The notes under the pieces: generated by a model
What the model was told of the DNA's origin: nothing
Databases searched by the model: none
The model's input: only the letters and a program-made list of their open reading frames with translations
Made by a program: the position numbers and the translations under genes
Shown: positions 11,396-56,230 of the stretch, piece after piece
Layout: every line of letters begins with the position of its first letter
Position numbering within the stretch: the first letter of the stretch is position 1
NCBI GenBank assembly: GCA_034620365.1
Contig: JAQGEQ010000080.1
Location: 248,001-312,000, forward strand
Reading direction: 5' to 3'
Source: Pegea sp. RAD2-039
Lineage: Eukaryota > Chordata > Thaliacea > Salpida > Salpidae
DNA length: 64,000 nucleotides

Positions 11396-13008
11396 TCACA
11401 GGACTTTTGTCGAAGTTGTTTCAGACATCTTAACGGCATTAACAAACAAATATTTAATTGGGGCAATGATATGCTTTATATAATGAAGCTCGCCATAAGG
11501 AGTACAAACATGACTTTCTGCAAGCTTCATAAGACAGGTAACAGCAGATTTGAAATCAAGTACTTCAGTTTTATTTGTAAGTTTTTCTTTGTGACAGCAA
11601 AGCAAGATCAAACGGCCGTAGTAACTAAATGAATTCCTTTTTTCTAGTTTAATGTCATCATCTTTAAATGATCGCTTCCATTCTTTGATGGCCCGCATCA
11701 ATTCAGAATTAGTTAACAATTCTTTTATATTTTCCTTTGTAAACATGAAACGATTATCTTTTACTAGACCAATCCCGACTTTGATGGCCATAGATATAGT
11801 TTCAGCATGAGTTATCATGTCAACCTTGTCGATTTTTGGGAGCTTGTTGACTTTTTGTTTCTCAGCAATCACTGGTTCATTACTTTCTTGTATTTCTGAA
11901 GACGGTTTGTTTCGTTTTATGTTTAAATCAGAAGACAAATCTGTTGTACGTTTCTTAGAAGGAGTCTTGCTACCAGTTATACGTGGCTCTTTATGAAATG
12001 ATTTTAAAGAGCTTGAGCCAGCTTTTCTAGAAACATCCAGTTTTCCAGTTGAGTCTTCATCTTGTAAACTCTTATTGGTCCCTTTAATTTGATCATCATT
12101 TAGTTGAGACTTTTTGGGACCCTTCAAAGTGACAACTTCTTCTTCTGATTTTCTTGATGATATGCTTTGAGGTTTTTGCAGCAATTTTTTTCCAGATGGT
12201 GTACTAGTTACAAGATTGCTGACATCGGACCAAACATTTCCAGTTGGAATTTCCAAGTTACTGTGATGAATACTTTTTTTATTATGTTGTCTACATTCAG
12301 ATGTAGTTCTAGAAGATGAAAAACGTTTCTTTGGTTTGGTAAAAGACTTTTCAGAAATATCTTTCTGGATTGTATTAATTAGACTGGCTATCTTATCATA
12401 AGGGATAACCTCATTTTCATCTTTTGTTCCATCTTCATCTTCACCTGTATGATCTTCTTCTTCATTACTATCATCATGGTTATCCCTATTTTCATCTTCA
12501 AAATAAATATTTTCATTTTTGTTAGATTCAATGGTTTCTTCATCTTGAGTTTCCATTCCTTGAACTTTCTTTAGATTAAGTTGCACTTTTCCAATATCAT
12601 CTTGTTTTATGAACATATCCTTGTTTCTGGAGTTTTCCACAACTGTTTTACTTTTAACATTTAGTTTGCACATTCTAGTCTTCTTTTTTGTACTTTTTGA
12701 TTTTATCATTGTGGATTTTATGTAAATCATCCTTAACTAAGATTTTAAATTTATCCACACCTTTTAAAATGTATCAGTTATCAAGATGATCAATCTTCAG
12801 GAGTTACTTTTCTTTACTGGCACCATATTTATCCTGTTTGCCTCTTTTTCACTTTTGTACACTTTTCTACACAAAATTGTAATTCATCATTCTCTTTAAG
12901 CTTCTCTAATTCTTCTGGATAATCTCTAGGTAGACTATTTTTCCAATACTTGCTAAACTTTTCAATTTCTTCAATACTTGTTGCAGTTTGGTTTAAATTA
13001 AAACTCAT
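11396..13008 (-). pseudogene. HP copy A, rearranged at its N-terminal half
   Basis: This is a copy of the unknown HP family. A 444-codon frame is open from ATG 12730 to 11396 and matches the acidic centre and C-terminal domain of the complete copies. The family's first residues are still readable at 12840-13008 (MSFNLNQTATS...), but no single frame joins them to the main part, and roughly residues 60-215 of complete copies are missing or scrambled. A further block of about 28 residues before the acidic run is also absent. The 444-codon part could be expressed alone, but relative to 53450-55402 and 58451-60421 it looks decayed. Confidence 0.6.
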
Positions 13009-19004: not shown

Positions 19005-22000
19005 ATGTTAAATGCAAGTTACATCAGTCTGGGGGATTATATAATCTTTGGAGGTTTGTATACTCAGTATCAGTTTCTATTTAGTATTTTATTTGCTCTT
19101 TGTGCAGCGGTTCTACTTCTGACTGTGATTTTTGGTGTTTACCATGCTTGGAAAGGTCGCAAAGGAGACACCTACAATTACTTCTTTGGTTCAGGGAACT
19201 TTCACCCAGTAAGTAACAAACTTCTAGCTTCATATACTTTCCTTAAAACTCTTCTTAGATTCCAATTGGACTCTCCATCTCACTCACATTTGTCAGCGCT
19301 TACACAGTAATTGGACTTTCAACTCAGATGTATTTCTTCGGAACCGTGATTTGCTGGTTTGTAGTTGGGACAGTGATCTCAAAACTCGTAGCTCATTGCT
19401 ACTACATCCCTCTATTTCGACAATTGAAGATGAATTCAATTAATAAGGTTTTACTTCATCCAGTCTTCAGCTTCTATTTATTTATTTTTTTTTCAGTATT
19501 TTCAGCTTCGTTATAGCCCCACCGTGCGGCGAGTCGCATCACTCTTTAGCATCATTAACATGGTAAGTCTCGTTGTCGCTTCAATGACGTCATCAGACAT
19601 ATTTTCACCCACAGATCCTATTCATGAGTATCAATATCTACGTCCCGTCATTGGCACTGAACGCGGTAACTCCACTACCAATAGAATCAGTTATGGTAGC
19701 AACAGGAGTCATCTGTACAACTTACACAGCATTTGTAAGTCATTTTTATTACGTCATATATCACTCAGAATCTGTTGATGATCATGATAGGGAGGTATTG
19801 AAACTGTGGTATGGACAGACACTTTTCAATCAATTGTTATGCTTTTGGGACAAGTTCTTATTTGCGTAATTGGTGTTTCAAAGGCTGGTGGAATAGGTGA
19901 AGTTTATGATGCTGTAAAGAATCTGAATCGATTGAACTTCAACAAGTAAGTTGTGATAGATTTGCATATATTCATTCACAATTTGTTTCAGTTTTAATGC
20001 AGATCCTTCTTACTCTTTCACCGCGTTCTCAATTGGATTTGGAACTGCAGTTAGTATGAGTGGAGCTTCCTGTGCTAACCAGTCGATGTCTCAGAGATTT
20101 TTGTCATGTAGAAACACGAAAGCTGCCCGAATGTAAAATTTCTTCATTAAACTATTGATAATGAAACATCAGATCAAAATTTATAACAAATATTTTCGAT
20201 ATTTGCAACTTCCAAAATAAGTCCTTGTAATAATTAAAAAGCATACAGTTCATAAATACTTTTTATCTTTTTGGTCTAAGGTGACTGTCCGTGAAAGGTT
20301 CTTTAACTGTTTAATGTATAATTGTGAACTTAAGTTACTTGGTAGCTTCCTTATCTTCTGAAAAAAAGTAGAAGAATATGAATAGTCATAATACTACTAT
20401 TATTAAACATGTCATTATTGGCATGTTTAGCCTAGAGTATGTTTAGACCAACCTTTGTCCTCTTTACATACCTCCTTAAAATCTGCATCACCATTCTTCT
20501 TTCTATCTTCCGACATCGAAGCACTAACAATATCACCATTACAACAAACTAATTTCTTTTAAATTCTAGTAACAACAAATAATGATTACTAATTTATTTC
20601 TAATTAAATTATTTTCACCCCAACTAAATAGTCTTTAATTTCAGAGCTAATTTGATTTCGGCATTACCAACTGCAATAATTATGCTAACATCCATCTTTA
20701 TTGGAGCAATCATGCTCGCCTTATATCAAGATTGTGATCTCTTATTTACTGGGAAGATACAGCGCCAAGATCAAGTCTTTCCTTACACAATGGTTCAACT
20801 ATTTAGTGACCACATTGGACTTTCAGGACTTTATCTGAGTGCCCTGTACAGCGGAGCATTGAGGTTTTTACATCCAAAATGTTCTACATCAATCATCGAA
20901 TCATGTTTCAGCTCAATGTCATCAGGACTCAACTCCGTAAGTGTGATGCTCATGGAAGATTTCACTAAAGTTCTCAAACCCAAAATCAATGAAAAGGAAT
21001 ATCTTTGGTGGAGTAAGGCAGTTGGTAAAGAGGCTTCAATTTTATATTCATCTTTTTAACTATTTATCTTCGACAGTTTTTATTTCCGGGGTTCTTACAA
21101 CTGGATTTGCTTTCATCTTTCAAAATCTCGGCCAGACCTTCTTAGTTGCATTCATGTAAATCTCAGGAATTGTAGCTGGTCCATTACTTGGACTATTCAC
21201 TCTTGGAATCTTTGTACCTTGGGCTAATACTAAGGTGACCAGTATCTTCACAAAGAAAGTCCATGACACGTTATTGCAGGGCGCTTTAGCTGGCCATATT
21301 GTTGCAACTGTACTAGCAGCTTGGATGGGTGCCGGTGCATTATCTAACCCAGCTTCATTACAAAGACAAAGACTACTTCCTTTGCCAATATCTAACTGTA
21401 CAATCAAGCTAAACCAAACACTATTTGTACTTCCTTCTATCGAACCAACAAGTCTACAAATTTTCTACTATACCTCCCCATTTATGTACGTCGCCTTTAC
21501 ATTGGTTGTTGTACTCGTGGTTGGAGTAACTGTTTCTTTTCTCACAGGTTTGTTACATAGTTGATGATGTAGTTGATGATGTAGTTGATGATGTAGTTGA
21601 TGACGTAGTTGATGATGTAGTTGATGATGTGATTGATGTTTTAGTTGACGATGTAGTTGATGATGTAGTTGATGAAGTAGTTGATTATGTAGCTGATGAT
21701 TTAGTTGATGAAGTAGTTAATGATGTAGTTGATGATGTAGTTGATGAAATAGGTGATGATGTAGTTGATGAAGTCGTTAATGATGTAGTTGATGATGTGG
21801 TTGATGACGTAGTTGATGATGTAGTTGATGATGTAGTTTCTGATGTAGAGGATGAAGTAGTTGATTATGTAGCTGATGATTTAGTTGATGAAGTAGTTAA
21901 TGATGTAGTTGATGATGTAATTGATGACGTAGTTGATGAAGTAGTTGATTATGTAGTTGATGATGTAGTTGATGATGTAGTTGATGATGTAGTTGATGAT

Positions 22001-25000
22001 GTGATTGATGATGTAGTTATTGATGTAATTGTTGATTTAATTGATGGTGTAGTTGATGATGTAGTTGATGATGTAGTTGTTGTTGTAGTTGATTATGTAG
22101 TTGATGAAGTAGTTGATTATGTAGCTGATGATTTAGTTGATGAAGTAGTTAATGATGTATTTGATGATGTAGTTGATGACGTAGTTGATGAATTAGTTGA
22201 TTATGTAGTTAATGATGTAGTTGATGATGTAATTGATGATGTGATTGATGATGTAGTTGTTGATGTAGTTGATGATGTAGTTGATGATTTAGTTGATGAA
22301 GTAGTTGATGATGTAGTTGGTGATTTAGTTGATGACGTAGTTGATGAAGTAGTTGATTATGTAGTTGATAATGTAGTTGATGAAGTAGTTGATTATGTAG
22401 CTGATGATTTAGTTGATGAAGTAGTTAATGATGTAGTTGATGAAGTCGTTAATGATGTAGTTGATGATGTAGTTGATGACGTAGTTGGTGAAGTAGTTGA
22501 TGATGTGATTGATGATGTAGTTGTTGATGTAATTGATGATGTAATTGATGGTGTAGTTGATGAAATAGTTGATGATTTAGTTGATGAAGTAGTTGATGAT
22601 GTAGTTGATGATGTAGTTGATGACGTAGTTGATGAAGTAGTTGATCATGTAGTTGATGATGTAGTTGATGAAGTAAATGATGTTGTAGTTGACGATGCAG
22701 TTGATGATGCAGTTGATGATGTAGCTGACGATGTAGTTGATGATGTAGTTGATGATGTAATTGATGATGTAGTTGATGATATAGCTGATGATTTAGTTGA
22801 TGAAGTAGTTGATGATGTAGTTGTTGTTGTGGTTGATTATGTATTTGATGATGTGGTTGATGATGTAGTTTATGGCGTAGTTGATGATGTAGTTGACGGT
22901 GTAGTTGATGATAAAATTGATGATGTAGTTGATGATGTAATTGATGACGTAGTTGATGAGGTAATTGATGATGTAGTTGATGAAATAGTTGATGAAATAG
23001 TTGATGAAATAGTTGGTGATGTAGTTGATGATTTAGTTGATGAAATAGTTGATGATGTAGTTGATGAAGTCGTTAATGATGTAGTTGATGACGTAGTTGA
23101 TGAAGTAGTTGATTATGTAGTTGATAATGTAGTTGATGAAGTAGTTGATTATGTAGCTGATGATTTAGTTGATGAAGTAGTTAATGATGTAGTTGATGAA
23201 GTCGTTAATGATGTAGTTGATGATGTAGTTGATGACGTAGTTGGTGAAGTAGTTGATGATGTAGTTGATGATGTAGTTGATGAAGTAGTTGATTATGTAA
23301 CTGATGATTTAGTTGATGAAGTAGTTAATGATGTAGTTGATGATGTAGTTGATGAAATAGTTGATGATGTAGTTGATGAAGTCGTTAATGATGTATTTGA
23401 TGATGTGGTTGATGACGTAGTTGATAATGTAGTTGATGATGTAGTTTATGATGTAGTTGATGAAGTAGTTGATGAAGTAGTTAATGATGTAGTTGATGAT
23501 GTAGTTGATGACGTAGTTGATGAAGTAGTTGATTATGTAGTTGATGATGTAATTGATGATGTGATTGATGATGTAGTTGTTGATGTAGTTGATGATGTAG
23601 TTGATGATTTAGTTGATGAAGTAGTTGATGATGTAGTTGGTGATGTAGTTGATGACGTAGTTGATGAAGTAGTTGATTATGTAGTTGATGATGTAGTTGA
23701 TGATGTAGTTGATGATGTGATTAATGATGTAGTTGTTGATGTAATTGATGATGTAATTGATGGTGTAGTTGATGAAATAGTTGATGATTTAGTTGATGAA
23801 GTAGTTGATGATGTAGTTGATGATGTAGTTGATGACGTAGTTGATGAAGTAGTTGATCATGTAGTTGATGATGTAGTTGATGAAGTAAATGATGTTGTAG
23901 TTGACGATGCAGTTGATGATGCAGTTGATGATGTAGCTGACGATGTAGTTGATGATGTAGTTGATGATGTAATTGATGATGTAGTTGATGATGTAGTTGA
24001 TGAAATAGTTGATGAAATAGTTGGTGATGTAGTTGATGATTTAGTTGATGAAAAAGTTGATGATGTAGTTGATGAAGTTGTTAATGATGTAGTTGATGAC
24101 GTAGTTGATGAAGTAGTTGATTATGTAGCTGATGATTTAGTTGATGAAGTAGTTAATGATGTAGTTGTTGAAGTCGTTAATGATTTAGTTGATGATGTAG
24201 TTGATGACGTAGTTGATGATGTAGTTGATGATGTAGTTGATGAAGTAGTTGATGAAATAGGTGATGATGTAGTTGATGAAGTCGTTAATGATGTAGTTGA
24301 TGATGTGGTTGATGACGTAGTTGATGATGTAGTTGATGATGTAGTTTATGATGTAGAGGATGAAGTAGTTGATTATGTAGCTGATGATTTAGTTGATGTA
24401 GTAGTTAATGATGTAGTTGATGATGTAGTTGATGACGTAGTTGATGAAGTAGTTGATTATGTAGTTGATGATGTAGTTGATGATGTAGTTGATGATGTGA
24501 TTGATGATGTAGTTGTTGATGTAATTGTTGATTTAATTGATGGTGTAGTTGATGATGTAGTTGATGATGTAGTTGTTGTTGTAGTTGATTATGTATTTGA
24601 TGATGTGGTTGATGATGTAGTTGATGGCGTAGTTGATGATGTAGTTGACGGTGTAGTTGATGATAAAATTGATGATGTAGTTGATGATGTAATTGATGAC
24701 GTAGTTGATGAGGTAATTGATGATGTAGTTGATGAAATAGTTGATGAAATAGTTGGTGATGTAGTTGATGATTTAGTTGATGACGTAGTTTGTGAAGTAG
24801 TTGATTATGTAGTTGATAATGTGATTAATGATGTAGTTGATGATGTAGTTGATGACGTAGTTGATGAAGTAGTTGATTATGTAGTTGATAATGTGATTAA
24901 TGATGTAGTGGATGAAGTAAATGATGTTGTAGTTGACGATGTAGTTGATGATGCAGTTGATGATGTAGCTGACGATGTAGTTGATGATGTAGTTGGTAAT

Positions 25001-27743
25001 GTAGTTGATGATGTAGCTGATGATTTAGTTGATAAAGTTGTTGATTATGTAGTTGTTGGTGTAGTTGATTATGTAGTTGATGATGTGGTTGATGATGTAG
25101 TTTATGGCGTAGTTGATGATGTAGTTGACGGTGTAGTTGATGATAAAATTGATGATGTAGTTGATGATGTAATTGATGACGTAGTTGATGAGGTAATTGA
25201 TGATGTAGTTGATGAAATAGTTGATGAAATAGTTGATGAAATAGTTGGTGATGTAGTTGATGATTTAGTTGATGAAATAGTTGATGATGTAGTTGATGAA
25301 GTCGTTAATGATGTAGTTGATGACGTAGTTGATGAAGTAGTTGATTATGTAGTTGATAATGTAGTTGATGAAGTAGTTGATTATGTAGCTGATGATTTAG
25401 TTGATGAAGTAGTTAATGATGTAGTTGATGAAGTCGTTAATGATGTAGTTGATGATGTAGTTGATGACGTAGTTGGTGATGTAGTTGATGATGTAGTTGA
25501 TGATGTAGTTGATGAAGTAGTTGATTATGTAACTGATGATTTAGTTGATGAAGTAGTTAATGATGTAGTTGATGATGTAGTTGATGAAATAGTTGATGAT
25601 GTAGTTGATGAAGTCGTTAATGATGTAGTTGATGATGTGGTTGATGACGTAGTTGATAATGTAGTTGATGATGTAGTTTATGATGTAGTTGATGAAGTAG
25701 TTGATGAAGTAGTTAATGATGTAGTTGATGATGTAGTTGATGACGTAGTTGATGAAGTAGTTGATTATGTAGTTGATGATGTAATTGATGATGTGATTGA
25801 TGATGTAGTTGTTGATGTAGTTGATGATGTAGTTGATGATTTAGTTGATGAAGTAGTTGATGATGTAGTTGGTGATGTAGTTGATGACGTAGTTGATGAA
25901 GTAGTTGATTATGTAGTTGATGATGTAGTTGATGATGTAGTTGATGATGTGATTAATGATGCAGTTGTTGATGTAATTGATGATGTAATTGATGGTGTAG
26001 TTGATGAAATAGTTGATGATTTAGTTGATGAAGTAGTTGATGATGTAGTTGATGATGTAGTTGATGACGTAGTTAATGAAGTAGTTGATCATGTAGTTGA
26101 TGATGTAGTTGATGAAGTAAATGATGTTGTAGATAACGATGCAGTTGATGATGCAGTTGATGATGTAGCTGACGATGTAGTTGATGATGTAGTTGATGAT
26201 GTAGTTGATGATGTAGTTGATGATGTAGTTGATGAAATAGTTGATGAAATAGTTGGTGATGTAGTTGATGATTTAGTTGATGAAATAGTTGATGATGTAG
26301 TTGATGAAGTTGTTAATGATGTAGTTGATGACGTAGTTGATGAAGTAGTTGATTATGTAGCTGATGATTTAGTTGATGAAGTAGTTAATGATGTAGTTGT
26401 TGAAGTCGTTAATGATTTAGTTGATGATGTAGTTGATGACGTAGTTGATGATGTAGTTGATGATGTAGTTGATGAAGTAGTTGATGAAATAGGTGATGAT
26501 GTAGTTGATGAAGTCGTTAATGATGTAGTTGATGATGTGGTTGATGACGTAGTTGATGATGTAGTTGATGATGTAGTTTATGATGTAGAGGATGAAGTAG
26601 TTGATTATGTAGCTGATGATTTAGTTGATGTAGTAGTTAATGATGGAGTTGATGATGTAGTTGATGACGTAGTTGATGAAGTAGTTGATTATGTAGTTGA
26701 TGATGTAGTTGATGATGTAGTTGATGATGTGATTGATGATGTAGTTGTTGATGTAATTGTTGATTTAATTGATGGTGTAGTTGATGATGTAGTTGATGAT
26801 GTAGTTGTTGTTGTAGTTGATTATGTATTTGATGATGTGGTTGATGATGTAGTTGATGGCGTAGTTGATGATGTAGTTGACGGTGTAGTTGATGATAAAA
26901 TTGATGATGTAGTTGATGATGTAATTGATGACGTAGTTGATGAGGTAATTGATGATGTAGTTGATAAAATAGTTGATGAAATAGTTGGTGATGTAGTTGA
27001 TGATTTAGTTGATGACGTAGTTTGTGAAGTAGTTGATTATGTAGTTGATAATATGATTAATGATGTAGTTGATGATGTAGTTGATGACGTAGTTGATGAA
27101 GTAGTTGATTATGTAGTTGAAATTGTGATTAATGATGTAGTGGATGAAGTAAATGATGTTGTAGTTGACGATGTAGTTGATGATGCAGTTGATGATGTAG
27201 CTGACGATGTAGTTGATGATGTAGTTGGTAATGTAGTTGATGATGTAGCTGATGATTTAGTTGATAAAGTAGTTGATTATGTAGTGGATGAAGTAAATGA
27301 TGTTGTAGTTGACGATGTAGTTGATGATGTAGTTGATGATGTAGCTGATGATGTAGCTGATGATTTAGTTGATGAAGTAGTTGATTATGTAGTTGTTGGT
27401 GTAGTTGATTATGTATTTGATGATGTGGTTGATGATGTAGTGGACGGTGTAATTGATGATGTCGTTGATGATGTAATTGATTAGTTTTTTGACGATTTAG
27501 TTAATAAATTAATACTTTGTAGGAGCAACAAAGCCAAAAGATCTAGATCCAAAACTGTTTCTACCTCTTATATACATCTCGTGTCTACCACCTTCATTCA
27601 ACAAGTTTTTTCGTCTTGGTGTACCAGAAATTGAAGAATCGATGATGATGCAGCCAATAAGAACAGCCATGAATCAGAATGATGATAAAAATTGTATTTC
27701 TTCTGACTATAAATGCGGAAGCAAAGTACAAGAAGATGTGTAA
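19005..27743 (+). pseudogene. SLC5 sodium-coupled monocarboxylate-type transporter, copy 1 (nonsense codon)
   Basis: Exons by GT-AG and homology: 19005-19053, 19108-19208, 19259-19447, 19497-19562, 19615-19734, 19791-19945, 19992-20132, 20645-20863, 20912-21024, 21077-21234, 21280-21547, 27523-27743. Total 1800 nt, 600 codons with stop, close to the ~610 residues of SLC5A8. SLC5 landmarks: DYIIFG, IPIGLSISLTFVSA, GGIETVVWTD, CANQSMSQRFLSCRN, the TM8 sodium-site region LSSMSSGLNS, GPLLGLFTLGIFVPWAN and the C-terminal TG..KPKDLDP tail. Copies 2 and 3 have CAA (Gln412); this copy has TAA at 21157-21159, removing the last ~188 residues including the final membrane segments. All splice sites are intact. 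Intron 11 is 5975 bp and filled by a minisatellite. It could still give a truncated or NMD-targeted transcript. Confidence 0.9.
21561..27510 (+). repeat. 12-bp minisatellite in last intron of transporter copy 1 (about 5.9 kb)
   Basis: Near-perfect tandem GATGATGTAGTT with substitutions (GAA, GAC, AAT, TAT, ATT, GCT variants) and length changes only in multiples of three. One plus-strand frame is open from 21629 to 27484 and would spell Asp-Asp-Val-Val repeats. The array starts 13 bp after the exon 11 donor (21548) and ends just before the acceptor TTTGTAG (27522). A 2232-bp higher-order duplication is visible: the marker ATAAAATTG recurs at 22911/25143 and 24663/26895, TTGATCATG at 23853/26085 and GGTGA at 23243/25475. 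A 1212-bp spacing also appears (22641/23853). Confidence 0.95.
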
Positions 27744-34867: not shown

Positions 34868-37800
34868 ATGTTAAATGCAAGTTACATCAGTCTGGGGGAT
34901 TATATAATCTTTGGAGGTTTGTATACTCAGTATCAGTTTCTATTTAGTATTATATTTGCTCTTTGTGCAGCGGTTATACTTCTGACTGTGATTTTTGGTG
35001 TTTACCATGCTTGGAAAGGTCGCAAAGGAGACACCTACAATTACTTCTTTGGTTCAGGGAACTTTCACCCAGTAAGTAACAAACTTCTAGCTTCATATAC
35101 TTTCCTTAAAACTCTTCTTAGATTCCAATTGGACTCTCCATCTCACTCACATTTGTCAGCGCTTACACAGTAATTGGACTTTCAACTCAGATGTATTTCT
35201 TCGGAACCGTGATTTGCTGGTTTGTAGTTGGGACAGTGATCTCAAAACTCGTAGCTCATTGCTACTACATCCCTCTATTTCGACAATTGAAGATGAATTC
35301 AATTAATAAGGTTTTACTTCATCCAGTCTTCAGCTTCTATTTATTTATTTTTTTTTCAGTATTTTCAGCTTCGTTATAGCCCCACCGTGCGGCGAGTCGC
35401 ATCACTGTTTAGCATCATTAACATGGTAAGTCTCGTTGTCGCTTCAATGACGTCATCAGACATGTTTTCACCCACAGATCCTATTCATGAGTATCAATAT
35501 CTACGTCCCGTCATTAGCACTGAACGCGGTAACTCCACTACCAATAGAATCAGTTATGGTAGCAACAGGAGTCATCTGTACAACTTACACAGCATTTGTA
35601 AGTCATTTTTATTACGTCATATATCACTCAGAATCTGTTGATGATCATGATAGGGAGGTATTGAAACTGTGGTATGGACAGACACTTTTCAATCAATTGT
35701 TATGCTTTTGGGACAAGTTCTTATTTGCGTAATTGGTGTTTCAAAGGCTGGTGGAATAGGTGAAGTTTATGATGCTGTAAAGAATCTGAATCGATTGAAC
35801 TTCAACAAGTAAGTTGCGATAGATTTGCATATACTCATTCACAATTTGTTTCAGTTTTAATGCAGATCCTTCTTACTCTTTCACCGCGTTCTCAATTGGA
35901 TTTGGAACTGCAGTTAGTATGAGTGGAGCTTCCTGTGCTAACCAGTCGATGTCTCAGAGATTTTTGTCATGTAGAAACACGAAAGCTGCCCGAATGTAAA
36001 ATTTCTTCATTAAACTATTGATAATGAAACATCAGATCAAAATTTATAACAAATATTTTCGATATTTGCAACTTCCAAAATAAGTCCTTGTAATAATTAA
36101 AAAGCATACAGTTCATAAATACTTTTTATCTTTTTGGTCTAAGGTGACTGTCCGTGAAAGGTTCTTTAACTGTTTAATGTATATTTGTGAACTTAAGTTA
36201 CCTGGTAGCTTCCTTATCTTCTGAAAAAAAGTAGAACAATATTAATAGTCATAAAACTACTATTATTAAACATGTCATTATTGGCATGTTTAGCCTAGAG
36301 TATGTTTAGACCAACCTTTGTCCTCTTTACATACCTCCTTAAAATCTGCATCACCATTCTTCTTTCTATCTTCCGACATCGAAGCACTAACAATATTACC
36401 ATTACAACAAACTAATTTCTTTTAAATTTTAGTAACAACAAATAATGATTTTTAATTTATTTCTAATTAAATTATTTTCACCCCAACTAAATAGTCTTTA
36501 ATTTCAGAGCTAATTTGATTTCGGCATTACCAACTGCAATAATTATGCTAACATCCATCTTTATTGGAGCAATCATGCTCGCCTTATATCAAGATTGTGA
36601 TCTCTTATTTACTGGGAAGATACAGCGCCAAGATCAAGTCTTTCCTTACACAATGGTTCAACTATTTAGTGACCACATTGGACTTTCAGGACTTTATCTG
36701 AGTGCCCTGTACAGCGGAGCATTGAGGTTTTTACATCCAAAATGTTCTACATCAATCATCGAATCATGTTTCAGCTCAATGTCATCAGGACTCAACTCCG
36801 TAAGTGTGATGCTCATGGAAGATTTCACTAAAGTTCTCAAACCCAAAATCAATGAAAGGGAATATCTTTGGTGGAGTAAGGCAGTTGGTAAAGAGGCTTC
36901 AATTTTATATTCATCTTTTTAACTATCTATCTTCGACAGTTTTTATTTCCGGGGTTCTTACAACTGGATTTGCTTTCATCTTTCAAAATCTCGGCCAGAC
37001 CTTCTTAGTTGCATTCATGCAAATCTCAGGAATTGTAGCTGGTCCATTACTTGGACTATTCACTCTTGGAATCTTTGTACCTTGGGCTAATACTAAGGTG
37101 ACCAGTAACTTCACAAAGAAAGTCCATGACACGTTATTGCAGGGCGCTTTAGCTGGCCATATTGTTGCAACTGTACTAGCAGCTTGGATGGGTGCCGGTG
37201 CATTATCTAACCCAGCTTCATTACAAAGACAAGGACTACTTCCTTTGCCAATGTCTAACTGTACAATCAAGCTAAACCAAACACTATTTGTACTTCCTTC
37301 TATCGAACCAACAAATCTACAAATTTTCTACTATACCTCCCCATTTTTGTACGTCGCCTTTACATTGGTTGTTGTACTCGTGGTTGGAGTAACTGTTTCT
37401 TTTCTCACAGGTTTGTTACATAGTTAATGATGTAGATGATGGTGTAATTGATGATGTAGTTGATGACGTAGTTGATGATGTAGTTGATGATGTGATTGAT
37501 GTTGTAGTTGACGATGTAGTTGATGATGTAGTTGATGATGTAATTGATGACGTATAAATGATGTAGTTAGTGATGTAGTTGTTGGTGTAGTTGATGGTGT
37601 AATTGATGATGTAGTTGATGGTGTAGATGATGATAAAATTGATGAAGTAGTTGATGACGTAATTGATGACGTAGTTGAGAAAGTAATTGATGATGAAGTT
37701 GATGACGTAGTTGATGAAGTAGTTGATTATGTAGTTGATAATGTGATTAATGATGTAGTTGATGATGTAATTGATGACGTGGTCGATAAAATAGTTGATG

Positions 37801-39858
37801 ATGTAGTTGATGAAGTATATGATGATGTAGTTGACGATGTAGTTGATGATGCAGTTGATGATGTAGTTGATGAAGTAGTTGATTATGTAGTTGATAATGT
37901 AATTGATGATGTAGTTGATGATGTAATTGATGACGTAGTCGATAAAATAGTTGATGATGTCTTTGATGAAATAAATGATGTTGTAGTTGACGATGCAGTT
38001 GATGATGCAGTTGATGATGTAGCTGACGATGTAGTTGATGATGTAGTTGATGATGTAATTGATGATGTAGTTGATGATATAGCTGATGATTTAGTTGATG
38101 AAGTAGTTGATGATGTAGTTGTTGTTCTAGTTGATTATGTATTCGATGATGTGGTTGATGATGTAGTTTATGGCGTAGTTGATGATGTAGTTGACGGTGT
38201 AGTTGATGATAAAATTGATGATGTAGTTGATGTAATTGATGACGTAGTTGATGAGGTAATTGATGATGTAGTTGATGAAATAGTTGATGAAATAGTTGGT
38301 GATGTAGTTGATGATTTAGTTGATGAAATAGTTGATGATGTATTTGATGAAGTCGTTAATGATGTAGTTGATGACGTAGTTGATGAAGTAGTTGATTATG
38401 TAGCTGATGATTTAGTTGATGAAGTAGTTAATGATGTAGTTGTTGAAGTCGTTAATGATTTAGTTGATGATGTAGTTGATGACGTAGTTGATGATGTAGT
38501 TGATGATGTAGTTGATGAAGTAGTTGATTATGTAGCTGATGATTTAGTTGATGAAGTAGTTAATGATGTAGTTGATGATGTAGTTGATGAAATAGGTGAT
38601 GATGTAGTTGATGAAGTCGTTAATGATGTAGTTGATGATGTGGTTGATGACGTAGTTGATGATGTAGTTGATGATGTAGTTTATGATGTAGAGGATGAAG
38701 TAGTTGATTATGTAGCTGATGATTTAGTTGATGAAGTAGTTAATGATGTAGTTGATGATGTAATTGATGACGTAGTTGATGAAGTAGTTGATTATGTAGT
38801 TGATGATGTAGTTGATGATGTAGTTGATGATGTAGTTGATGATGTGATTGATGATGTAGTTGTTGATGTAATTGTTGATTTAATTGATGGTGTAGTTGAT
38901 GATGTAGTTGATGATGTAGTTGTTGTTGTAGTTGATTATGTAGTTGATGAAGTAGTTGATTATGTAGCTGATGATTTAGTTGATGAAGTAGTTAATGATG
39001 TAGTTGGTGAAGTCGTTAATGATGTAGTTGATGATGTAGTTGATGACGTAGTTGGTGATGTAGTTAATGATGTAGTTGATGATGTAGTTGATGAAATAGT
39101 TGATGATGTAGTTGATGAAGTCGTTAATGATGTAGTTGATGATGTGGTTGATGATGTAGTTGATAATGTAGTTGATGATGTAGTTTATGATGTAGTTGAT
39201 GATTTAGTTGATGGCGTAGTTTGTGAAGTAGTTGATTATGTAGTTGATAATGTGATTAATGATGTAGTTGATGATGTAGTTGATGACGTAGTTGATGAAG
39301 TAGTTGATAATGTGATTAATGATGTAGTGGATGAAGTAAATGATGTTGTAGTTGACGATGTAGTTGATGATGCAGTTGATGATGTAGCTGACGATGTAGT
39401 TGATGATGTAGTTGGTAATGTAGTTGATGATGTAGCTGATGATTTAGTTGATAAAGTAGTTGATTATGTAGTTGATGATTTAGTTGATGAAGTAGTTGAT
39501 GAAGTAGTTGTTGGTGTAGTTGATTATGTATTTGATGATGTGGTTGATGATGTAGTGGACGGTGTAATTGATGATGTCGTTGATGATGTAATTGATGAAA
39601 TTTTTGACGATGTAGTTAATAAATTAACACTTTGTAGGAGCAACAAAGCCAAAAGATCTAGATCCAAAACTGTTTCTACCTCTTATATACATCTCGTGTC
39701 TACCACCTTCATTCAACAAGTTTTTTCGTCTTGGTGTACCAGAAATTGATGAATCGATGATGATGCAGCCAATAAGAACAGCCATGAATCATAATGATGA
39801 TAAAAATTGTATTTCTTCTGACTATAAATGCGGAAGCAAAGTACAAGAAGATGTGTAA
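34868..39858 (+). CDS. SLC5 sodium-coupled monocarboxylate-type transporter, copy 2 (intact)
   Basis: Twelve exons: 34868-34916, 34971-35071, 35122-35310, 35360-35425, 35478-35597, 35654-35808, 35855-35995, 36508-36726, 36775-36887, 36940-37097, 37143-37410, 39638-39858. Together they encode 599 residues. SLC5 proteins of the SMCT branch carry lactate, short-chain fatty acids or related anions with sodium across the plasma membrane through about 13 membrane helices; the substrate here is inferred from branch resemblance only. The exons preserve GGIETVVWTD (residues 176-185), the TM8 Ser-rich sodium site (about 346-356), an extracellular loop with N-glycosylation sequons (NCT, NQT near 475-485) and the KPKDLDP tail. 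Gln412 is present. Start: first ATG ahead of TM1, after an A-rich context. The last intron (37411-39637, 2227 bp) is almost entirely minisatellite. Confidence 0.9.
37425..39625 (+). repeat. 12-bp minisatellite in last intron of transporter copy 2 (about 2.2 kb)
   Basis: Same GATGATGTAGTT family. The first ~320 bp are interrupted (a stop near 37555), then one frame is open from 37743 through the 3' splice site to 39749. Beyond the splice site that frame is not the transporter frame. One unit near 38230 is a triplet shorter, still in phase. Confidence 0.95.
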
Positions 39859-46991: not shown

Positions 46992-49900
46992 ATGTTAAAT
47001 GCAAGTTACATCAGTCTGGGGGATTATATAATCTTTGGAGGTTTGTATACTCAGTATCAGTTTCTATTTAGTATTTTATTTGCTCTTTGTGCAGCGGTTA
47101 TACTTCTGACTGTGATTTTTGGTGTTTACCATGCTTGGAAAGGTCGCAAAGGAGACACTTACAATTACTTCTTTGGTTCAGGGAACTTTCACCCAGTAAG
47201 TAACAAACTTCTAGCTTCATATAATTTCCTTAAAACTCTTCTTAGATTCCAATTGGACTCTCCATCTCACTCACATTTGTCAGCGCTTACACAGTAATTG
47301 GACTTTCAACTCAGATGTATTTCTTCGGAACCGTGATTTGCTGGTTTGTAGTTGGGACAGTGATCTCAAAACTCGTAGCTCATTGCTACTACATCCCTTT
47401 ATTTCGACAATTGAAGATGAATTCAATTAATAAGGTTTTACTTCATCCAGTCTTCAGCTTCTATTTATTTATTTTTTTTTCAGTATTTTCAGCTTCGTTA
47501 TAGCCCCACCTTGCGGCGAGTCGCATCACTCTTTAGCATCATTAACATGGTAAGTCTCGTTGTCGCTTCAATGACGTCATCAGACATGTTTTCACCCACA
47601 GATCCTATTCATGAGTATCAATATCTACGTCCCGTCATTAGCACTGAACGCGGTAACTCCACTACCAATAGAATCAGTTATGGTAGCAACAGGAGTCATC
47701 TGTACAACTTACACAGCATTTGTAAGTCATTTTTATTACGTCATATATCACTCAGAATCTGTTGATGATCATGATAGGGAGGTATTGAAACTGTGGTATG
47801 GACAGACACTTTTCAATCAATTGTTATGCTTTTGGGACAAGTTCTTATTTGCGTAATTGGTGTTTCAAAGGCTGGTGGAATAGGTGAAGTTTATGATGCT
47901 GTAAAGAATCTGAATCGATTGAACTTCAACAAGTAAGTTGTGATAGATTTGCATATACTCATTCACAATTTGTTTCAGTTTTAATGCAGATCCTTCTTAC
48001 TCTTTCACCGCGTTCTCAATTGGATTTGGAACTGCAGTTAGTATGAGTGGAGCTTCCTGTGCTAACCAGTCGATGTCTCAGAGATTTTTGTCATGTAGAA
48101 ACACGAAAGCTGCCCGAATGTAAAATTTCTTCATTAAACTATTGATAATGAAACATCAGATCAAAATTTATAACAAATATTTTCGATATTTGCAACTTCC
48201 AAAATAAGTCCTTGTAATAATTAAAAAGCATACAGTTCATAAATACTTTTTATCTTTTTGGTCTAAGGTGACTGTCCGTGAAAGGTTCTTTAACTGTTTA
48301 ATGTATATTTGTGAACTTAAGTTACCTGGTAGCTTCCTTATCTTCTGAAAAAAAGTAGAAGAATATGAATAGTCATAAAACTACTATTATCAAACATGTC
48401 ATTATTGGCATGTCTAGCCTAGAGTATGTTAAGACCGACCTTTGTCCTCTTTACGTACCTCCTTAAAATCTGCATCACCATTCTTCTTTCTATCTTCCGA
48501 CATCAAAGCACTAACAATATCACCATTACAACAAACTAATTTCTTTTAAATTTTAGTAACAACAAATAATGATTATTAATTTATTTCTAATTAAATTATT
48601 TTCACCCCAACTAAATAGTCTTTAATTTCAGAGCTAATTTGATTTCGGCATTACCAACTGCATTAATTATGCTAACATCCATCTTTATTGGAGCAATCAT
48701 GCTCGCCTTATATCAAGATTGTGATCTCTTATTTACTGGGAAGATACAGCGCCAAGATCAAGTCTTTCCTTACACAATGGTTCAACTATTTAGTGACCAC
48801 ATTGGACTTTCAGGACTTTATCTGAGTGCCCTGTACAGCGGAGCATTGAGGTTTTTACATCCAAAATGTTCTACATCAATCTTCGAATCTTGTTTCAGCT
48901 CAATGTCATCAGGACTCAACTCCGTAAGTGTGATGCTCATGGAAGATTTCACCAAAGTTCTGAAACCCAAAATCAATGAAAGGGAATATCTTTGGTGGAG
49001 TAAGGCGGTTGGTAAGGAGGCTTCAATTTTATATTCATCTTTTTAACTATTTATCTTCGACAGTTTTTATATCCGGAATTGTTACAACTGGATTTGCTTT
49101 CATCTTTCAAAATCTCGGCCAGACCTTCTTAGTTGCATTCATGCAAATCTCAGGAATTGTAGCTGGTCCATTACTTGGACTATTCACTCTTGGAATCTTT
49201 GTACCTTGGGCTAATACTAAGGTGACCAGTAACTTCACAACGAAAGTCCATGACACGTTATTGCAGGGCGCTTTAGCTGGCCATATTGTTGCAACTGTAC
49301 TAGCAGCTTGGATGGGTGCCGGTGCATTATCTAACCCAGCTTCATTACAAAGACAAGGACTACTTCCTTTGCCAATGTCTAACTGTACAATCAAGCTAAA
49401 CCAAACACTATTTGTACTTCCTTCTAGCGAACCAACAAATCTACAAATTTTCTACTATACCTCCCCATTTTTGTACGTCGCCTTTACATTGGTTGTTGTA
49501 CTCGTGGTTGGAGTAACTGTTTCTTTTCTCACAGGTTTGTTACATAGTTGATGATGTAGATGATGGTGTAATTGATGATGTAGTTGATGATGTAGTTGAT
49601 GACGTAGTTGATGAAGTAGTTGACGATGTAATTGATGATGTGATTGATGATGTAGTTGATGATGTAATTGATGACGTAGTCGATAAAATAGTTGATGATG
49701 TAGTTGATGAAGTAAATAATGTTGTAGTTGACGATGTAGTTGATGATGCAGTTGATGATGTGATTGATGATGTAGATGTTGATTTTATTGATGATGTAAT
49801 TGATGATGTAACTGATGATTTAGTTGATGATGTAGTTGATGATTTAGTTGATGATGTGATTGATGATGTAGTTGTTGATGTAGTTGATGATGTAGTTGAT

Positions 49901-51962
49901 GATTTAGTTGATGAAGTAATTGATGATGTGATTGATGATGTAGTTGTTGATGTAGTTGATGATGTAGTTGATGATTTAGTTGATGAAGTAGTTGATGATT
50001 TAGTTGATGAAGTAGTTGATGATGTAGTTGATGATGTAGTTGATGATGTAGTTGATGATGTATTTGATGAAGTAGTTGATCATGTAGTTGATGATGTAGT
50101 TGATGAAGTAAATGATGTTGTAGTTGACGATGCAGTTGATGATGTAGTTGATGATGTAGCTGACGATGTAGTTGATGATGTAGCTGATGATGTAATTGAT
50201 GATGTAGTTGATGATATAGCTGATGATTTAGTTGATGAAGTAGTTGATGATGTAGTTGTTGTTGTAGTTGATTATGTATTCGATGATGTGGTTGATGATG
50301 TAGTTGACGGTGTAGTTGATGATAAAATTGATGATGTAGTTGATGATGTAATTAATGACGTAGTTGATGAGGTTATTGATGATTTAGTTGATGAAGTAGT
50401 TGATGATGTAGTTGTTGTTGTAGTTGATTATGTATTCGATGATGTGGTTGATGATGTAGTTGACGGTGTAGTTGATGATAAAATTGATGATGTAGTTGAT
50501 GATGTAATTGATGACGTAGTTGATGAGGTAATTGATGATGTAGTTGATGAAATAGTTGATGAAATAGCTGGTGATGTAGTTGATAATTTAGTTGATGAAA
50601 TAGTTGATGATGTTGTTGATGAAGTCGTGAATGATGTAGTTGATGACGTAGTTGATGAAGTAGTTGATTATGTAGCTGATGATTTAGTTGATGAAGTAGT
50701 TAATGATGTAGTTGATGAAGTCGTTAATGATGTAGTTGATGAAGTAGTTGATTATGTAGTTGATGATGTAGTTGATGATGTAGTTGATCATGTGATTGAT
50801 GATGTAGTTGATCATGTGATTGATGATGTAGTTGTTGATGTAATTGTTGATTTAATTGATGGTGTAGTTGATGAATTAGTTGATTATGTAGTTGTTGTTG
50901 TAGTTGATTATGTATTTGATGATGTGGTTGATGATGTAGTTGATGGCGTAGTTGATGATGTAGTTGACGGTGTAGTTGATGATAAAATTGATGATGTAGT
51001 TGATGATGTAATTGATGACGTAGTTGATGAGGTAATTGATGATGTAGTTGATGTAATAGTTGATGAAATAGTTGGTGATATAGTTGATGATTTAGTTGAT
51101 GAAATAGTTGATGATGTAGTTGATGAAGTCGTTAATGATGTAGTTGATGAGGTAATTGATGACGTAGTCGATAAAATAGTTGATGATGTAGTTGATGAAG
51201 TCGTTAATGATGTAGTTGATGAGGTAGTTGATGATGTAGTCGATAAAATAGTTGATGATGTAGTTGATGAAGTAAATGATGTTGTAGTTGACGGTGTAGT
51301 TGATGATGTAGTTGATGATGTAGCTGACGATGTAGTTGATGATGTAGTTGATGATGTAGTTGATGATGTATTTGATGATGTAGCTGATGATTTAGTTGAT
51401 GATGTAATTGATGATGTAGTTGATGATCTAGTCGATAAAATAGTTGATTATGTAGTTGATGAATTAAATGATGTTGTAGTTGACGATGTAGTTGATGATG
51501 CAGTTGATGATGTAACTGACGATGTAGTTGATGATGTAGTTGATGATGCAGTTGATGATGTAGCTGACGATGTAGTTGATGATGTAGTTGATGATGTAGT
51601 TGATGACGTAGTTAATGATTTAGTTGATTATGTATTTGATGATGTGGTTGATGATGTAGTGGACGGTGTAATTGATGATGTCGTTGATGATGTAATTGAT
51701 GAAATTTTTGACGATGTAGTTAATAAATTAATACTTTGTAGGAGCAACAAAGCCAAAAGATCTAGATCCAAAACTGTTTCTACCTCTTATATACATCTCG
51801 TGTCTACCACCTTCATTCAACAAGTTTTTTCGTCTTGGTGTACCAGAAATTGAAGAATCGATGATGATGCAGCCAATAAGAACAGCCATGAATCAGAATG
51901 ATGATAAAAATTGTATTTCTTCTGACTATAAATGCGGAAGCAAAGTACAAGAAGATGTGTAA
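46992..51962 (+). CDS. SLC5 sodium-coupled monocarboxylate-type transporter, copy 3 (intact)
   Basis: Twelve exons: 46992-47040, 47095-47195, 47246-47434, 47484-47549, 47602-47721, 47778-47932, 47979-48119, 48632-48850, 48899-49011, 49064-49221, 49267-49534, 51742-51962. They encode 599 residues. All donors and acceptors are kept and no stop is seen. It differs from copy 2 by few residues, for example PTALIM for PTAIIM, SGIVTTG for SGVLTTG and PSSEPT for PSIEPT. As in copy 2, the final exon supplies the cytosolic tail after the last membrane helix, and intron 11 (49535-51741, 2207 bp) is filled by minisatellite. The near identity suggests recent duplication or ongoing conversion. Gene dosage, not new function, is the simplest reading. 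Confidence 0.9.
49549..51729 (+). repeat. 12-bp minisatellite in last intron of transporter copy 3 (about 2.2 kb)
   Basis: Same family. One frame is open from 49640 across the acceptor to 51853, out of the transporter frame after the splice site. Its unit order differs from copy 2, with local duplications such as the two 'GACGGTGTAGTTGATGATAA' blocks near 50305 and 50463. So the arrays rearranged after the units duplicated. Confidence 0.95.
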
Positions 51963-53449: not shown

Positions 53450-56230
53450 TCACAAGACCTTTGGCAAGATCGTTTCAGAAACCTTTACGGAATTAGCAAA
53501 CAAATATTTAATTGGAGCAATGATATGCTTTATATAATGAAGCTCGCCATAAGGAGTACAAACATGACTTTCTGCAAGCTTCATAAGACGAGTAACAACC
53601 AATTTAAAATCAACTGCTATAGTTTTCTCTGTAAGTTTTTCTTTATGACAGCAAAGCAAAATCAAATGGCCGTAGTAACTAAATGAATTCCTTTTTTCTA
53701 GTTTAATATCATCATCTTTAAATGATCTCTTCCATTCTTTGATGGCTCGCATCAATTCAGAATTAGTTAACAACTCTTTTACGTTTCCCTTAGTAAACAT
53801 GAAACGCTTATCTTTTACTAGACCAATCCCGACTTTGATGGCCATAGATATAGTTTCAGCATGAGTTATCATGTCTACCTTGTCGATTTTTGGGAGCTTG
53901 TTGACTTTTTGTCTCTCAGCAATCACTGGTTCATTACTTTTTTGTTTTTCAGAAGACGGTTTGTTTCGTTTTATGTTTAAATCAGAAGACAAATCTGTTG
54001 TACGTTTCTTAGAAGGAGTCTTGCTACCAGTTATACGTGGCTCTTTATGAAATGATTTTAAAGAGCTTGAGCCAGCTTTTCTAGAAACATCCAGTTTTCC
54101 AGTTGAGTCTTCATCTTGTAAACTCTTATTGGTCCCTTTAATTTGATCATCATTTAGTTGAGACTTTTTGGGACCCTTCAAAGTGACAACTTCTTCTGAT
54201 TTTCTTGATGATATGCTTTGAGGTTTTTGCAGCAATTTTTTTCCAGATGGTGTACTAGTTACAAGATTGCTGACATCGGACCAAACATTTCCAGTTGGAG
54301 TTTCCAAGTTACTGTGATGAATACTTTTTTTAGTATGTTGTCTACATTCAGATGTAGTTCTAGAAGATGAAAAACTTTTATTTGGTTTGGTAAAAGACTT
54401 TTCAGAAATATCTTTCTGGATTGTTTCAATTAGACTGGCTATCTTATCATAAGGGATAACCGGATTTTCATCTATTGTTCCATCTTCATCTTCATCTGTA
54501 TGATCTTCTTCTTCATTACTGTCACCATGGTCATCCCTATTTTCATCATTCTTCTTTACTTCTTCTATATCATCCACAACACCAACTACTGAAGAAGCTG
54601 TTTCATTATTTTCTTCCCGACTACAAAAATTTTTCTCATTTTTGTCAGATTCACTGGTTTTTTCATCTTGAGTTTCCATTTCTTTAACTTTCTCTAGATT
54701 AAGTTGCACTTCTCCAATATCATCTTGTTCAATGAACATTTCCTTAATTCTAGAATTTTCTACAGCTGTTTTATTTTTAGCAATTAGTTTTTGTGAAACG
54801 TTTTCTTTTTCAACTAACATGAGTTCTTTCTTTACATCCTTCAACATGAGAGTCAAGTACTTTTTGAGCCAGCCACTTTTCAATCGTGTTTTACTAAGAA
54901 GACTATTTACTTCAGTCCATAATTTTGTGAATTGCTCATTATTTGTTAAATTACTCATAACAACATGATCATTTATTTCTTTGATTTTATTTAAATTTTT
55001 AGTAGATTTACCCAATTGATTCACAACATGTTTTGAGATCTTATCATTTGCATTACTTTTCCTAATATTTTCCTCATCAAATTTATCATTGTGGCTTTCA
55101 ATTACTTCATCCTTAACTAAGCCTTTACAATCCTCCACATTTCTGGAGATCTTAGGATTACTTTCAGAATCCAGATTTTCACCCTGCCTTAGGGGATACT
55201 TTTCTTTATAGCTTGTAGAAGATTTTACTTTTTCACTTCTGTTCACTTTTCTGTTAGAGCCACTTAATTGTACAACTTCATCATTCTTATTAGGCTTCTC
55301 TAGTTCTTTGCGATATTCCCTAGGTAGATTATTCTTCCACCGTTTGCTAAGCTTTTCAATTTCTTCAAGACTTATTGCAGTTTGGTTTAAGTTAAAACCC
55401 ATAACTTTTATTTGCTAACATTTTAGTTCAACTTCTTTAAAAGAAAATCACATTTTTTAAAATGATGGCAGTGATATTTTTGAACTATAAATAGAATAAT
55501 ATGGTTTTTGAATAACAGACTGACAAAAAATAATTAATATCTCTATATTCCAATACAAATTCATTTAATCATAATACCGGACAAAATATTTAATAAATGA
55601 AGAGCAACAAAAGAAATTAAAGAAAGAATTAAATAGAATAAATAAGGCAAGAAATAGTATCTATAGAAAATACTTTAAACTATAATTATTTTATAAGATA
55701 AAAAAATGTCTACAAAACAAATATAGAACAGATGAAACAAATAGAGAAATATGAAAGCAATTCATAGAAAATTAACTTAAATTTAACGTCTTAAGTACAA
55801 AAATTGCTAAAAAATCAAATTCCCCAAAATATGTGATTTATTTTTAAAATTCTAGAATTCTTCTATTCCTAAAGTGAAGATCTATTATTATGAATTTTAT
55901 CATTTTTGAGATCAGATAACATTGTAATAAATTTTACAAAACAAGGCGGAAACAACAAAATTAAATTAATACATTTAAGTCATTAGATTAAAAAATAGTA
56001 AACTAAAAAAATATTGTTTATAATATTGAAACTTAAAAAAACTTTAACTAAATGTCCAATTCTTCAACTTTTTTAATATTTTAAAAATGTAACAGCTTTG
56101 TTAATTAAAAAGAGTAAAAATTAAAAAAAATATTATAGTAAACAGTTGAAAATTATATTCTCTAAATAATTTGTGTGGAAAATAAAGTTGCAGCCTAAAT
56201 AATCTTAAAAGGCTGCAGATTTAATTTATT
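52500..56230 (+). repeat. Inner palindrome, left arm
   Basis: Reverse-complement match to about 57140-62525. Anchors: HP 53450-55402 with 58451-60421, and the motif AATAAAGTTGCAG at about 56180 with its complement near 57178. The spacer (about 56230-57140) holds the third tRNA-Arg. The right arm is longer because it keeps segments deleted from units 2-4. Confidence 0.85.
53450..55402 (-). CDS. HP, complete copy in unit 4: unknown acidic/basic protein, 650 residues
   Basis: Single exon, ATG at 55402. I do not recognise the family. By position: an N-terminal helix (about 8-40; LEEIEKLSKRWKNNLPREY), low-complexity Lys/Asn/Asp/Ser sequence, a segment near 155-200 (WTEVNSLLSKT, SGWLKKYLTLMLKDVKKEL), a strongly acidic run (about 290-320; SNEEEDHTDEDEDG), the motif IPYDKIASLIETIQKDI, a conserved TPTGNVWSDVSNLVTSTPSG, a basic region with a bipartite NLS-like pattern (SKKRTTD...IKRNK) and an ordered Cys-containing helical C-terminal domain (about 510-640; HAETISMAIKVGIGL, SYYGHLILLCCHKEKL). 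No signal peptide or membrane segment. A nuclear role is inferred from composition. It lacks introns, unlike the transporter, so retro-origin is possible. Confidence 0.75.
   Translation of the reverse strand: MGFNLNQTAISLEEIEKLSKRWKNNLPREYRKELEKPNKNDEVVQLSGSNRKVNRSEKVKSSTSYKEKYPLRQGENLDSESNPKISRNVEDCKGLVKDEVIESHNDKFDEENIRKSNANDKISKHVVNQLGKSTKNLNKIKEINDHVVMSNLTNNEQFTKLWTEVNSLLSKTRLKSGWLKKYLTLMLKDVKKELMLVEKENVSQKLIAKNKTAVENSRIKEMFIEQDDIGEVQLNLEKVKEMETQDEKTSESDKNEKNFCSREENNETASSVVGVVDDIEEVKKNDENRDDHGDSNEEEDHTDEDEDGTIDENPVIPYDKIASLIETIQKDISEKSFTKPNKSFSSSRTTSECRQHTKKSIHHSNLETPTGNVWSDVSNLVTSTPSGKKLLQKPQSISSRKSEEVVTLKGPKKSQLNDDQIKGTNKSLQDEDSTGKLDVSRKAGSSSLKSFHKEPRITGSKTPSKKRTTDLSSDLNIKRNKPSSEKQKSNEPVIAERQKVNKLPKIDKVDMITHAETISMAIKVGIGLVKDKRFMFTKGNVKELLTNSELMRAIKEWKRSFKDDDIKLEKRNSFSYYGHLILLCCHKEKLTEKTIAVDFKLVVTRLMKLAESHVCTPYGELHYIKHIIAPIKYLFANSVKVSETILPKVL

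What the first reader, a model, noticed from the sequence alone, without database searches (positions are those of the whole stretch)
21548..27522. A stop-free 5.9-kb 'giant protein' is really an intron-borne minisatellite
Seen: a 1951-codon frame of Asp-Asp-Val-Val repeats. However, exon 11 of the SLC5 gene ends at 21547 with a GT donor, and after the array comes TTTGTAG and a 221-nt exon. Its frame (GATKPKDLDP...) continues exon 11 in phase and matches the SLC5 TG..LDP tail. The same holds for copies 2 and 3 (37411-39637, 49535-51741). With this exon the gene is exactly 600 codons. ORF-based annotation would report three spurious repeat proteins and a transporter truncated at its C-terminus.
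Basis: partly seen in the sequence, partly recalled or inferred. Interest (0 to 1): 0.85.

Follow-up and report, generated by a model that had tools for sequence, protein, structure and literature searches.

The report
Repeat-filled introns mistaken for proteins
A 6-kilobase stretch that looks like a giant gene is a short repeated DNA word filling an intron of a nutrient-transporter gene, and the same word fills introns of several unrelated genes in this animal, in the same orientation wherever that could be checked.

Summary
At 21548-27522 a 12-bp unit (GTAGTTGATGAT) repeats about 494 times and leaves a 1951-codon Val-Val-Asp-Asp frame. It lies between a GT donor and a TTTGTAG acceptor, in a phase-1 intron of an SLC5-type sodium symporter present in three tandem copies. 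Adding exon 12 raises the SLC5A6 match from 286 to 301.5 bits; three divergent paralogues have an intron at the same site and phase, only 49-138 nt long. The frame has no usable ATG, no purifying-selection signal and no stop depletion; no single base change in the unit can create a stop. It is not a protein. One correction: copy 1, the named one, has an in-frame stop at 21157, so only copies 2 and 3 encode 599 residues.

The larger result lies outside the coordinates. I count 24 more array sites in the genome. In five further unrelated genes (A1CF/hnRNP-like, Sac1-domain, Furry/MOR2-like, secretin-type GPCR, CFAP100) joining the exons across the array restores a conserved domain or protein in frame, each time with the same array strand as sense. 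Several arrays begin inside the GTAAGT donor. This looks like a sense-locked intron satellite family, probably in a tunicate. How it spreads is inferred.

The parts
19005..21547 (+). SLC5-like gene copy 1, exons 1-11: 19005-19053, 19108-19208, 19259-19447, 19497-19562, 19615-19734, 19791-19945, 19992-20132, 20645-20863, 20912-21024, 21077-21234, 21280-21547
   Evidence: GT/AG introns, open frame except one stop; Pfam SSF 8e-40 and SLC5A6/A8/A5 matches for the equivalent copy-2 protein
21157..21159 (+). in-frame TAA in exon 10 of copy 1 (codon 412): premature stop upstream of the array
   Evidence: translation of the three copies; copies 2 and 3 are open here
21548..27522 (+). intron 11 of copy 1 (5975 nt), almost wholly the 12-bp array; holds the spurious 1951-codon frame 21629-27484
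21558..27481 (+). 12-bp minisatellite, about 494 units, with a 186-unit (2232-bp) higher-order duplication
   Evidence: TRF; 59.7% identical unit pairs at lag 186 against at most 19.8% at any other lag below 400
27523..27743 (+). exon 12 of copy 1 (C-terminal tail, stop at end)
   Evidence: in-phase continuation; raises homology scores when joined, tested with copy 2
34868..37410 (+). copy 2, exons 1-11 (last ones 36940-37097 and 37143-37410)
37411..39637 (+). intron 11 of copy 2 (2227 nt): array 37421-39617
39638..39858 (+). exon 12 of copy 2
46992..49534 (+). copy 3, exons 1-11 (last ones 49064-49221 and 49267-49534)
49535..51741 (+). intron 11 of copy 3 (2207 nt): array 49545-51721
51742..51962 (+). 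exon 12 of copy 3

Best explanation
The stretch is intron 11 of an SLC5-type sodium/solute symporter gene (SLC5A6/A8/A5 branch), triplicated in tandem, in an AT-rich animal genome, probably a tunicate. The intron was short in the ancestor and was taken over by a 12-bp satellite that is spliced out. The satellite is one of a family of about 27 array sites seen in this genome. In each of the six genes where both flanking exons were recognised, the array lies inside an intron with the C-poor strand as the sense strand, and in several loci the first unit is fused to the GTAAGT donor. The long Val-Val-Asp-Asp frame is passive: the period is divisible by 3 and no single change in the unit makes a stop. 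Proposed mechanism (inferred): a donor-proximal seed, GTAAGTTGATGAYG, gives microhomology that lets array segments be copied into other introns in the sense register; slippage and unequal exchange in large blocks then lengthen them, perhaps helped by R-loops on the G-rich non-template strand. Shown: splice signals and phase, homology, dispersal, sense orientation in six genes, block duplication. Not shown: splicing in RNA, the route of spread, any function. My confidence is about 0.95 for a non-coding SLC5 intron, 0.8 for the sense-locked family and 0.3 for the mechanism; the figure below is for the first two together.
For: Exon 12 adds 9-15 bits in each of the four closest SLC5 chains. Phase-1 intron at the same site in 3 paralogues. 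24 array sites outside the window (exact 30-mer hits). Joined exons across arrays: A1CF/hnRNP-type RRM 2.2e-36, Syja_N 3.1e-12, MOR2-PAG1_C 5.4e-11, 7tm_2 2.2e-13, CFAP100 1.6e-13 (acceptor checked); all sense. GTAAGT followed within 24 nt by a sense array: 6 matches at 5 loci; by an antisense array: 0. Donor-plus-unit patterns: 12 hits against 0 for the reversed pattern, 5 against 1. Strict donor at the array's 5' end in 5 of 14 outside-window loci; 0 of 14 in the antisense arrangement. No coding signal.
Against: No transcript data. For 10 of the 15 outside-window arrays with flanks in hand (16 loci read, L047 and L035 being two ends of one array), joined exons did not prove an intron. C1:2069k has 5'-nucleotidase exons ending at a donor, but the joined stretch does not extend the domain (E 0.046). 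C23 has phase-matched open flanks without a family. C247 has a donor but its flanking phases did not match. C29:990k lies beside a reverse transcriptase. C282 is degenerate, with no intron sign and a sub-cut-off ubiquitin-like stretch on the antisense side. The Sac1-domain join found no solved-structure match and the CFAP100 join no Pfam match. Acceptor-like sites do not discriminate: 5 of 14 sense, 3 of 14 antisense. Six of six sense is only p = 0.03 two-sided as a sign test. In the window genes the array starts 7-10 nt after the donor, not in it. Column shuffling of all 495 units gave 8.7 stops against 1 observed, which looks like stop depletion until units are collapsed to distinct types.
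Confidence: 0.85

Rival explanations
1. The frame is a real repeat protein gene (acidic Val-Asp repeats), or an alternative exon of the transporter gene.
For: 1951 codons stop-free; no indel in copy 1 by TRF and the first unit alignment (scored differently, placed one 1-base gap); fewer stops than columnwise shuffling predicts in array 1 (1 v 8.7).
Against: No in-frame ATG in copies 2 and 3, one near the end in copy 1. 0 of 36 single changes make a stop, so openness is free. Replacement/silent ratio 1.25, or 1.14 on distinct units. Over 234 distinct units from 18 arrays, 6 carry a stop against 6.6 expected; some sister arrays hold 10, 13 and 24 frameshift indels. Read in the transporter frame, the array gives a stop after GLLHS (sequence).
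Confidence: 0.03
2. The arrays are ordinary dispersed minisatellites that merely tolerate introns; the sense bias is a small-sample accident or results from purging of antisense copies.
For: Only six genes have both flanking exons recognised; some arrays have no visible gene context. Minisatellites in introns are common (recalled).
Against: Fusion of the first unit with GTAAGT recurs at C29, C51, C247, C374 and C28:402k and at C200 and C202, with no antisense counterpart of the pattern. On array-sense flanks nine of 16 matched Pfam families were seen over their cut-off, plus connexin; on antisense flanks, of five matched families only low-complexity Cornifin was seen over its cut-off, three were under it and one (DUF1720, E 0.0055) was not located.
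Confidence: 0.3
3. The arrays are introner elements: mobile units that create new introns and carry their own splice sites.
For: Near-identical intron content in unrelated genes; donor supplied by or fused to the first unit.
Against: In the SLC5 genes the intron position is older than the array: three paralogues share it with short introns. Acceptors differ between loci and lie outside the array. Arrays of 0.5-6 kb mostly exceed the median introner lengths of 30-654 nt reported in PMC9860276 (passages seen).
Confidence: 0.12

Closest known systems
SLC5 / sodium:solute symporter family (SLC5A6 SMVT, SLC5A8 SMCT1, SLC5A5 NIS)
   Same: Host gene: Pfam SSF 8e-40; phmmer 1.1e-88, 1.4e-86 and 1.7e-84, the SLC5A6 alignment running through the exon 11/12 junction
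   Different: Substrate unknown; copy 1 carries a premature stop
Intronic minisatellites (general kind, recalled)
   Same: Short tandem unit, variable copy number, block duplications, inside an intron
   Different: One unit shared by introns of unrelated genes, the same strand sense in all six recognised cases, first unit often fused to the donor
Introner elements (PMC9860276, passages seen)
   Same: Repeated sequence found as intron content in many genes, sometimes supplying a splice site
   Different: Tandem array rather than a dispersed unit copy; SLC5 intron pre-exists; no acceptor carried; no target-site duplication examined

Membership tests
SLC5 / SSF transporter | SSF domain over curated cut-off | tested here: met
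   137.4 bits against 22.8 (614-aa model of copy 2)
SLC5 / SSF transporter | intact open frame | tested here: inconclusive
   met in copies 2 and 3, not in copy 1
Spliceosomal GT-AG intron | GT/AG ends, phase kept across the junction, position shared by paralogues | tested here: met
Spliceosomal GT-AG intron | removed from mature RNA | not testable with these tools
   no RNA data held
Minisatellite | tandem units of about 10-60 bp with variable copy number | tested here: met
   12 bp; 494, 183 and about 181 units in three gene copies
Repeat protein gene | start codon and constraint on the frame | tested here: not met
Introner element | insertion creates a new intron | tested here: not met
   SLC5 paralogues have the intron without the array; not tested at other loci
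Introner element | carries one or both splice sites | tested here: inconclusive
   donor fused to the first unit at several loci; acceptor not in the array
Introner element | target-site duplication or terminal inverted repeats | not tested
   no empty sites available

The most novel reading that the evidence does not exclude
A splice-site-anchored satellite: a 12-bp repeat that colonises existing introns of unrelated genes only in the sense direction, starting at or within the 5' splice site, and grows them from tens of bases to kilobases. It would spread from intron to intron by copying guided by donor-site homology, or by an RNA- or R-loop-dependent route.
Probability: 0.3. Interest if true: 0.75.

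Novelty: new variant of a known kind. Interest (0 to 1): 0.45.

Why it matters
At the simple level it is a clear case where ORF-based annotation would report giant acidic proteins and truncate real genes. If the sense lock holds genome-wide, it offers a natural system for asking how satellites enter introns, why orientation relative to transcription matters for repeat growth, and how small introns become large ones in a compact genome.

Tried and rejected
My first gene model (11 exons, 614 residues) missed a 45-nt intron; solved-structure alignments showed a 15-residue gap there, and the 12-exon model scored higher (301.5 v 280.3 bits).

Stop depletion as a coding signal: seen with column shuffling of all units, gone with distinct units.

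A link between the array and the TGACGTCA palindrome that is enriched at many array-bearing loci: GTAAGT followed within 40 nt by TGACGTCA occurred at 7 of 30 donors (and 3 times upstream), but a reversed-donor control word gave 7 of 24, so no support.

Literature: searches showed no report of this repeat or of sense-locked donor-anchored intron satellites among the listed titles and abstract starts (10 to 15 rows each; 2; further matching papers were not listed); most subscription papers are not held. Papers seen: PMC9860276 (passages), PMC13326754 (abstract, outline, section 21, passages), PMC7464555 (search listing only).
Full report
OBSERVATION. The window is contig C74:248001-312000 of an unnamed 105.7-Mb genome in 387 contigs, 28.8% G+C. 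The frame 21629-27484 (1951 codons) and its sisters at 37743-39749 and 49640-51853 exist and consist of a 12-bp repeat, 493.7 copies in the first. The stretch 21548-27522 has a GT donor after 21547 and TTTGTAG before 27523, and the same signals bound 37411-39637 and 49535-51741.

HOST GENE. I first overlooked the 45-nt intron 10; removing it raised the best solved-structure match from 280.3 to 301.5 bits. The copy-2 protein matches sodium-dependent multivitamin transporter (1.1e-88), monocarboxylate transporter 1 (1.4e-86) and the iodide cotransporter (1.7e-84), and Pfam SSF at 8.1e-40 (614-aa model). Ending the protein inside the intron instead of using exon 12 costs 9-15 bits for each of the four closest chains; the other ten of 14 chains, which are more distant, show no gain from exon 12. 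Copy 1 has an in-frame TAA at 21157-21159; copies 2 and 3 are open. So the copy with the largest array is the broken one. The copies differ in 11, 20 and 15 of 1800 coding positions (copies 1-2, 1-3, 2-3); with so few changes the replacement/silent ratios (1.38, 0.46, 0.27) are only suggestive of constraint between copies 2 and 3.

ANCESTRAL INTRON. Three divergent SLC5 paralogues, two on C18 and one on C30, have a phase-1 intron exactly where the array intron lies, of 138, 49 and 84 nt, followed by a C-terminal exon; I found these by reading the sequence, not by a search hit in the tail. The other loci fetched (five on C71, two on C1) gave no match at the tail and were not used. The array therefore occupies an older, short intron.

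WHY THE FRAME IS OPEN. The period is a multiple of three and none of 36 single changes to GTA GTT GAT GAT yields a stop. The replacement/silent ratio against the consensus is 1.25. The copy-1 frame has one ATG, at 27053; the other two have none. Over 18 arrays and 234 distinct units, 6 contain a stop (all in the degenerate C282 array) against 6.6 expected, and frameshift indels are common in several arrays (10, 13 and 24 in L034, L037, L062). The result pointing the other way, 1 stop against 8.7 by column shuffling of all array-1 units, disappears when repeated unit types are counted once (0 against 1.07, P 0.29). Array 1 is built of a 2232-bp block repeated about 2.7 times: 59.7% of units are identical at lag 186, against at most 19.8% at any other lag below 400. 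Arrays 2 and 3 are about one block long.

GENOME-WIDE FAMILY. A 30-mer of the unit gives 317 exact hits (141 + 176), with 0 for the reversed control. Protein and DNA searches place arrays at 27 sites, three of them in the window (my count of close matches in the listings; both lists are capped, low-identity acidic repeats were left out, and C127 and C169 may be one locus assembled twice). I read flanks of 16 loci representing 15 arrays outside the window. Taking the four longest open stretches per strand and locus within 1500 nt of the array, 64 per strand, the array-sense strand matched 16 Pfam families at E up to 0.01, led by Ras 1.8e-38, DUF4200 5.8e-26, 5'-nucleotidase 7.4e-19 and 7tm_2 3.4e-12; of 33 of these stretches scanned singly, nine families plus connexin were over their cut-offs and several weak ones under; four of the 16 families are the same Ras-like stretch. 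The antisense strand matched five; of 27 stretches scanned singly, Cornifin, a low-complexity hit at C374, exceeds its cut-off, ubiquitin (two models) at C282 and Cation_efflux at C23 do not, and DUF1720 was not located.

EXONS JOINED ACROSS ARRAYS. At C29 a 6-kb array, with a further 1.1 kb of intron after it, separates two halves of an RRM; joined in phase 0 they match APOBEC-1 stimulating protein at 2.2e-36 through the junction, with one 1-residue gap a few residues on. At C200:8k the joined exons match Syja_N (3.1e-12; no solved-structure match), at C202 MOR2-PAG1_C (5.4e-11, against 2.8e-7 for the upstream stretch alone), at C28:196k 7tm_2 (2.2e-13), and at C374 CFAP100 (1.6e-13; no Pfam match; acceptor 276 nt after the array). 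With SLC5 that is six genes, all with the array's C-poor strand as sense. Of seven joins tested, two others failed to prove a domain: C1:2069k (5'-nucleotidase tail, E 0.046) and C23 (no family). C247 has a donor but no phase-matched flank. C29:990k lies beside a reverse transcriptase, and C169 and C279 lie on the same strand as nearby Ras and connexin exons without proof of an intron. The rest are unresolved.

DONOR ANCHORING. GTAAGTNGTTGATGANGT occurs 12 times genome-wide (reversed control 0) and GTAAGTTGATGANGTAG 5 times (control 1). GTAAGT followed within 24 nt by a sense array: 6 matches at 5 loci; the antisense arrangement: 0. A strict donor lies at the array's 5' end in 5 of 14 outside-window loci and in 0 of 14 for the antisense arrangement; sense acceptor-like sites near the 3' end occur in 5 of 14 and antisense ones in 3 of 14, so acceptors do not discriminate. 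In the SLC5 genes the array begins 7-10 nt inside the intron.

MECHANISM. Inference only. A shared unit in unrelated introns argues for copying between loci; orientation locked to transcription and fusion with the donor argue that donor homology, or an RNA- or R-loop-linked process, guides it. Arrays have G/C skew of 0.65-0.97 on the sense strand. Slippage and unequal exchange then lengthen arrays, as the 2232-bp block suggests. The alternative, purging of antisense arrays by selection, is not excluded.

ORGANISM. A connexin match over its cut-off at C279 (1.4e-9, 38.5 bits against 31.3; a second stretch 5.2e-5, under it) and one glycosyl hydrolase 6 match just over its cut-off (1.2e-4) suggest a tunicate. 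The 14 control genomes had none, but as far as named they are prokaryotes and say nothing about animals. PMC7464555 (listing) concerns tunicate GH6 genes. That connexins are a chordate family is recalled.

VERDICT. The specific locus is ordinary in kind; the sense-locked, donor-anchored family is the part worth a specialist's time.

Noticed in passing
L029, L032, L049, L061, L063, L064 and others: The palindrome TGACGTCA, often within TGATGACGTCATCA, is enriched in and around many genes carrying arrays (141 occurrences with full flanks in 29 loci) but absent from the nine C71, C30, C1 and C18 SLC5 loci L051-L059; the window has 8 outside arrays against 0.26 expected.
   Followed up: partly
window 11396-12730 (-), 53450-55402 (-), 58448-60421 (+): Related long single-exon frames (444-657 aa) with no Pfam match, on both strands, with fragments inside the repeated gene units.
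   Followed up: partly
window about 14500-54000: Tandem triplication of about 9.9 kb (array length excluded) carrying the SLC5 gene, 92-94% identical over long stretches including arrays, plus inverted copies towards the window ends.
   Followed up: partly
G000:C148 start, C279 end: Two contigs end inside the 12-bp array, so arrays probably break the assembly and are undercounted.
   Followed up: no
L063:2941-3133: A separate 24-bp tandem repeat containing TGACGTCATCA lies near the array in the CFAP100-like gene; its antisense frame gives a Cornifin hit.
   Followed up: no
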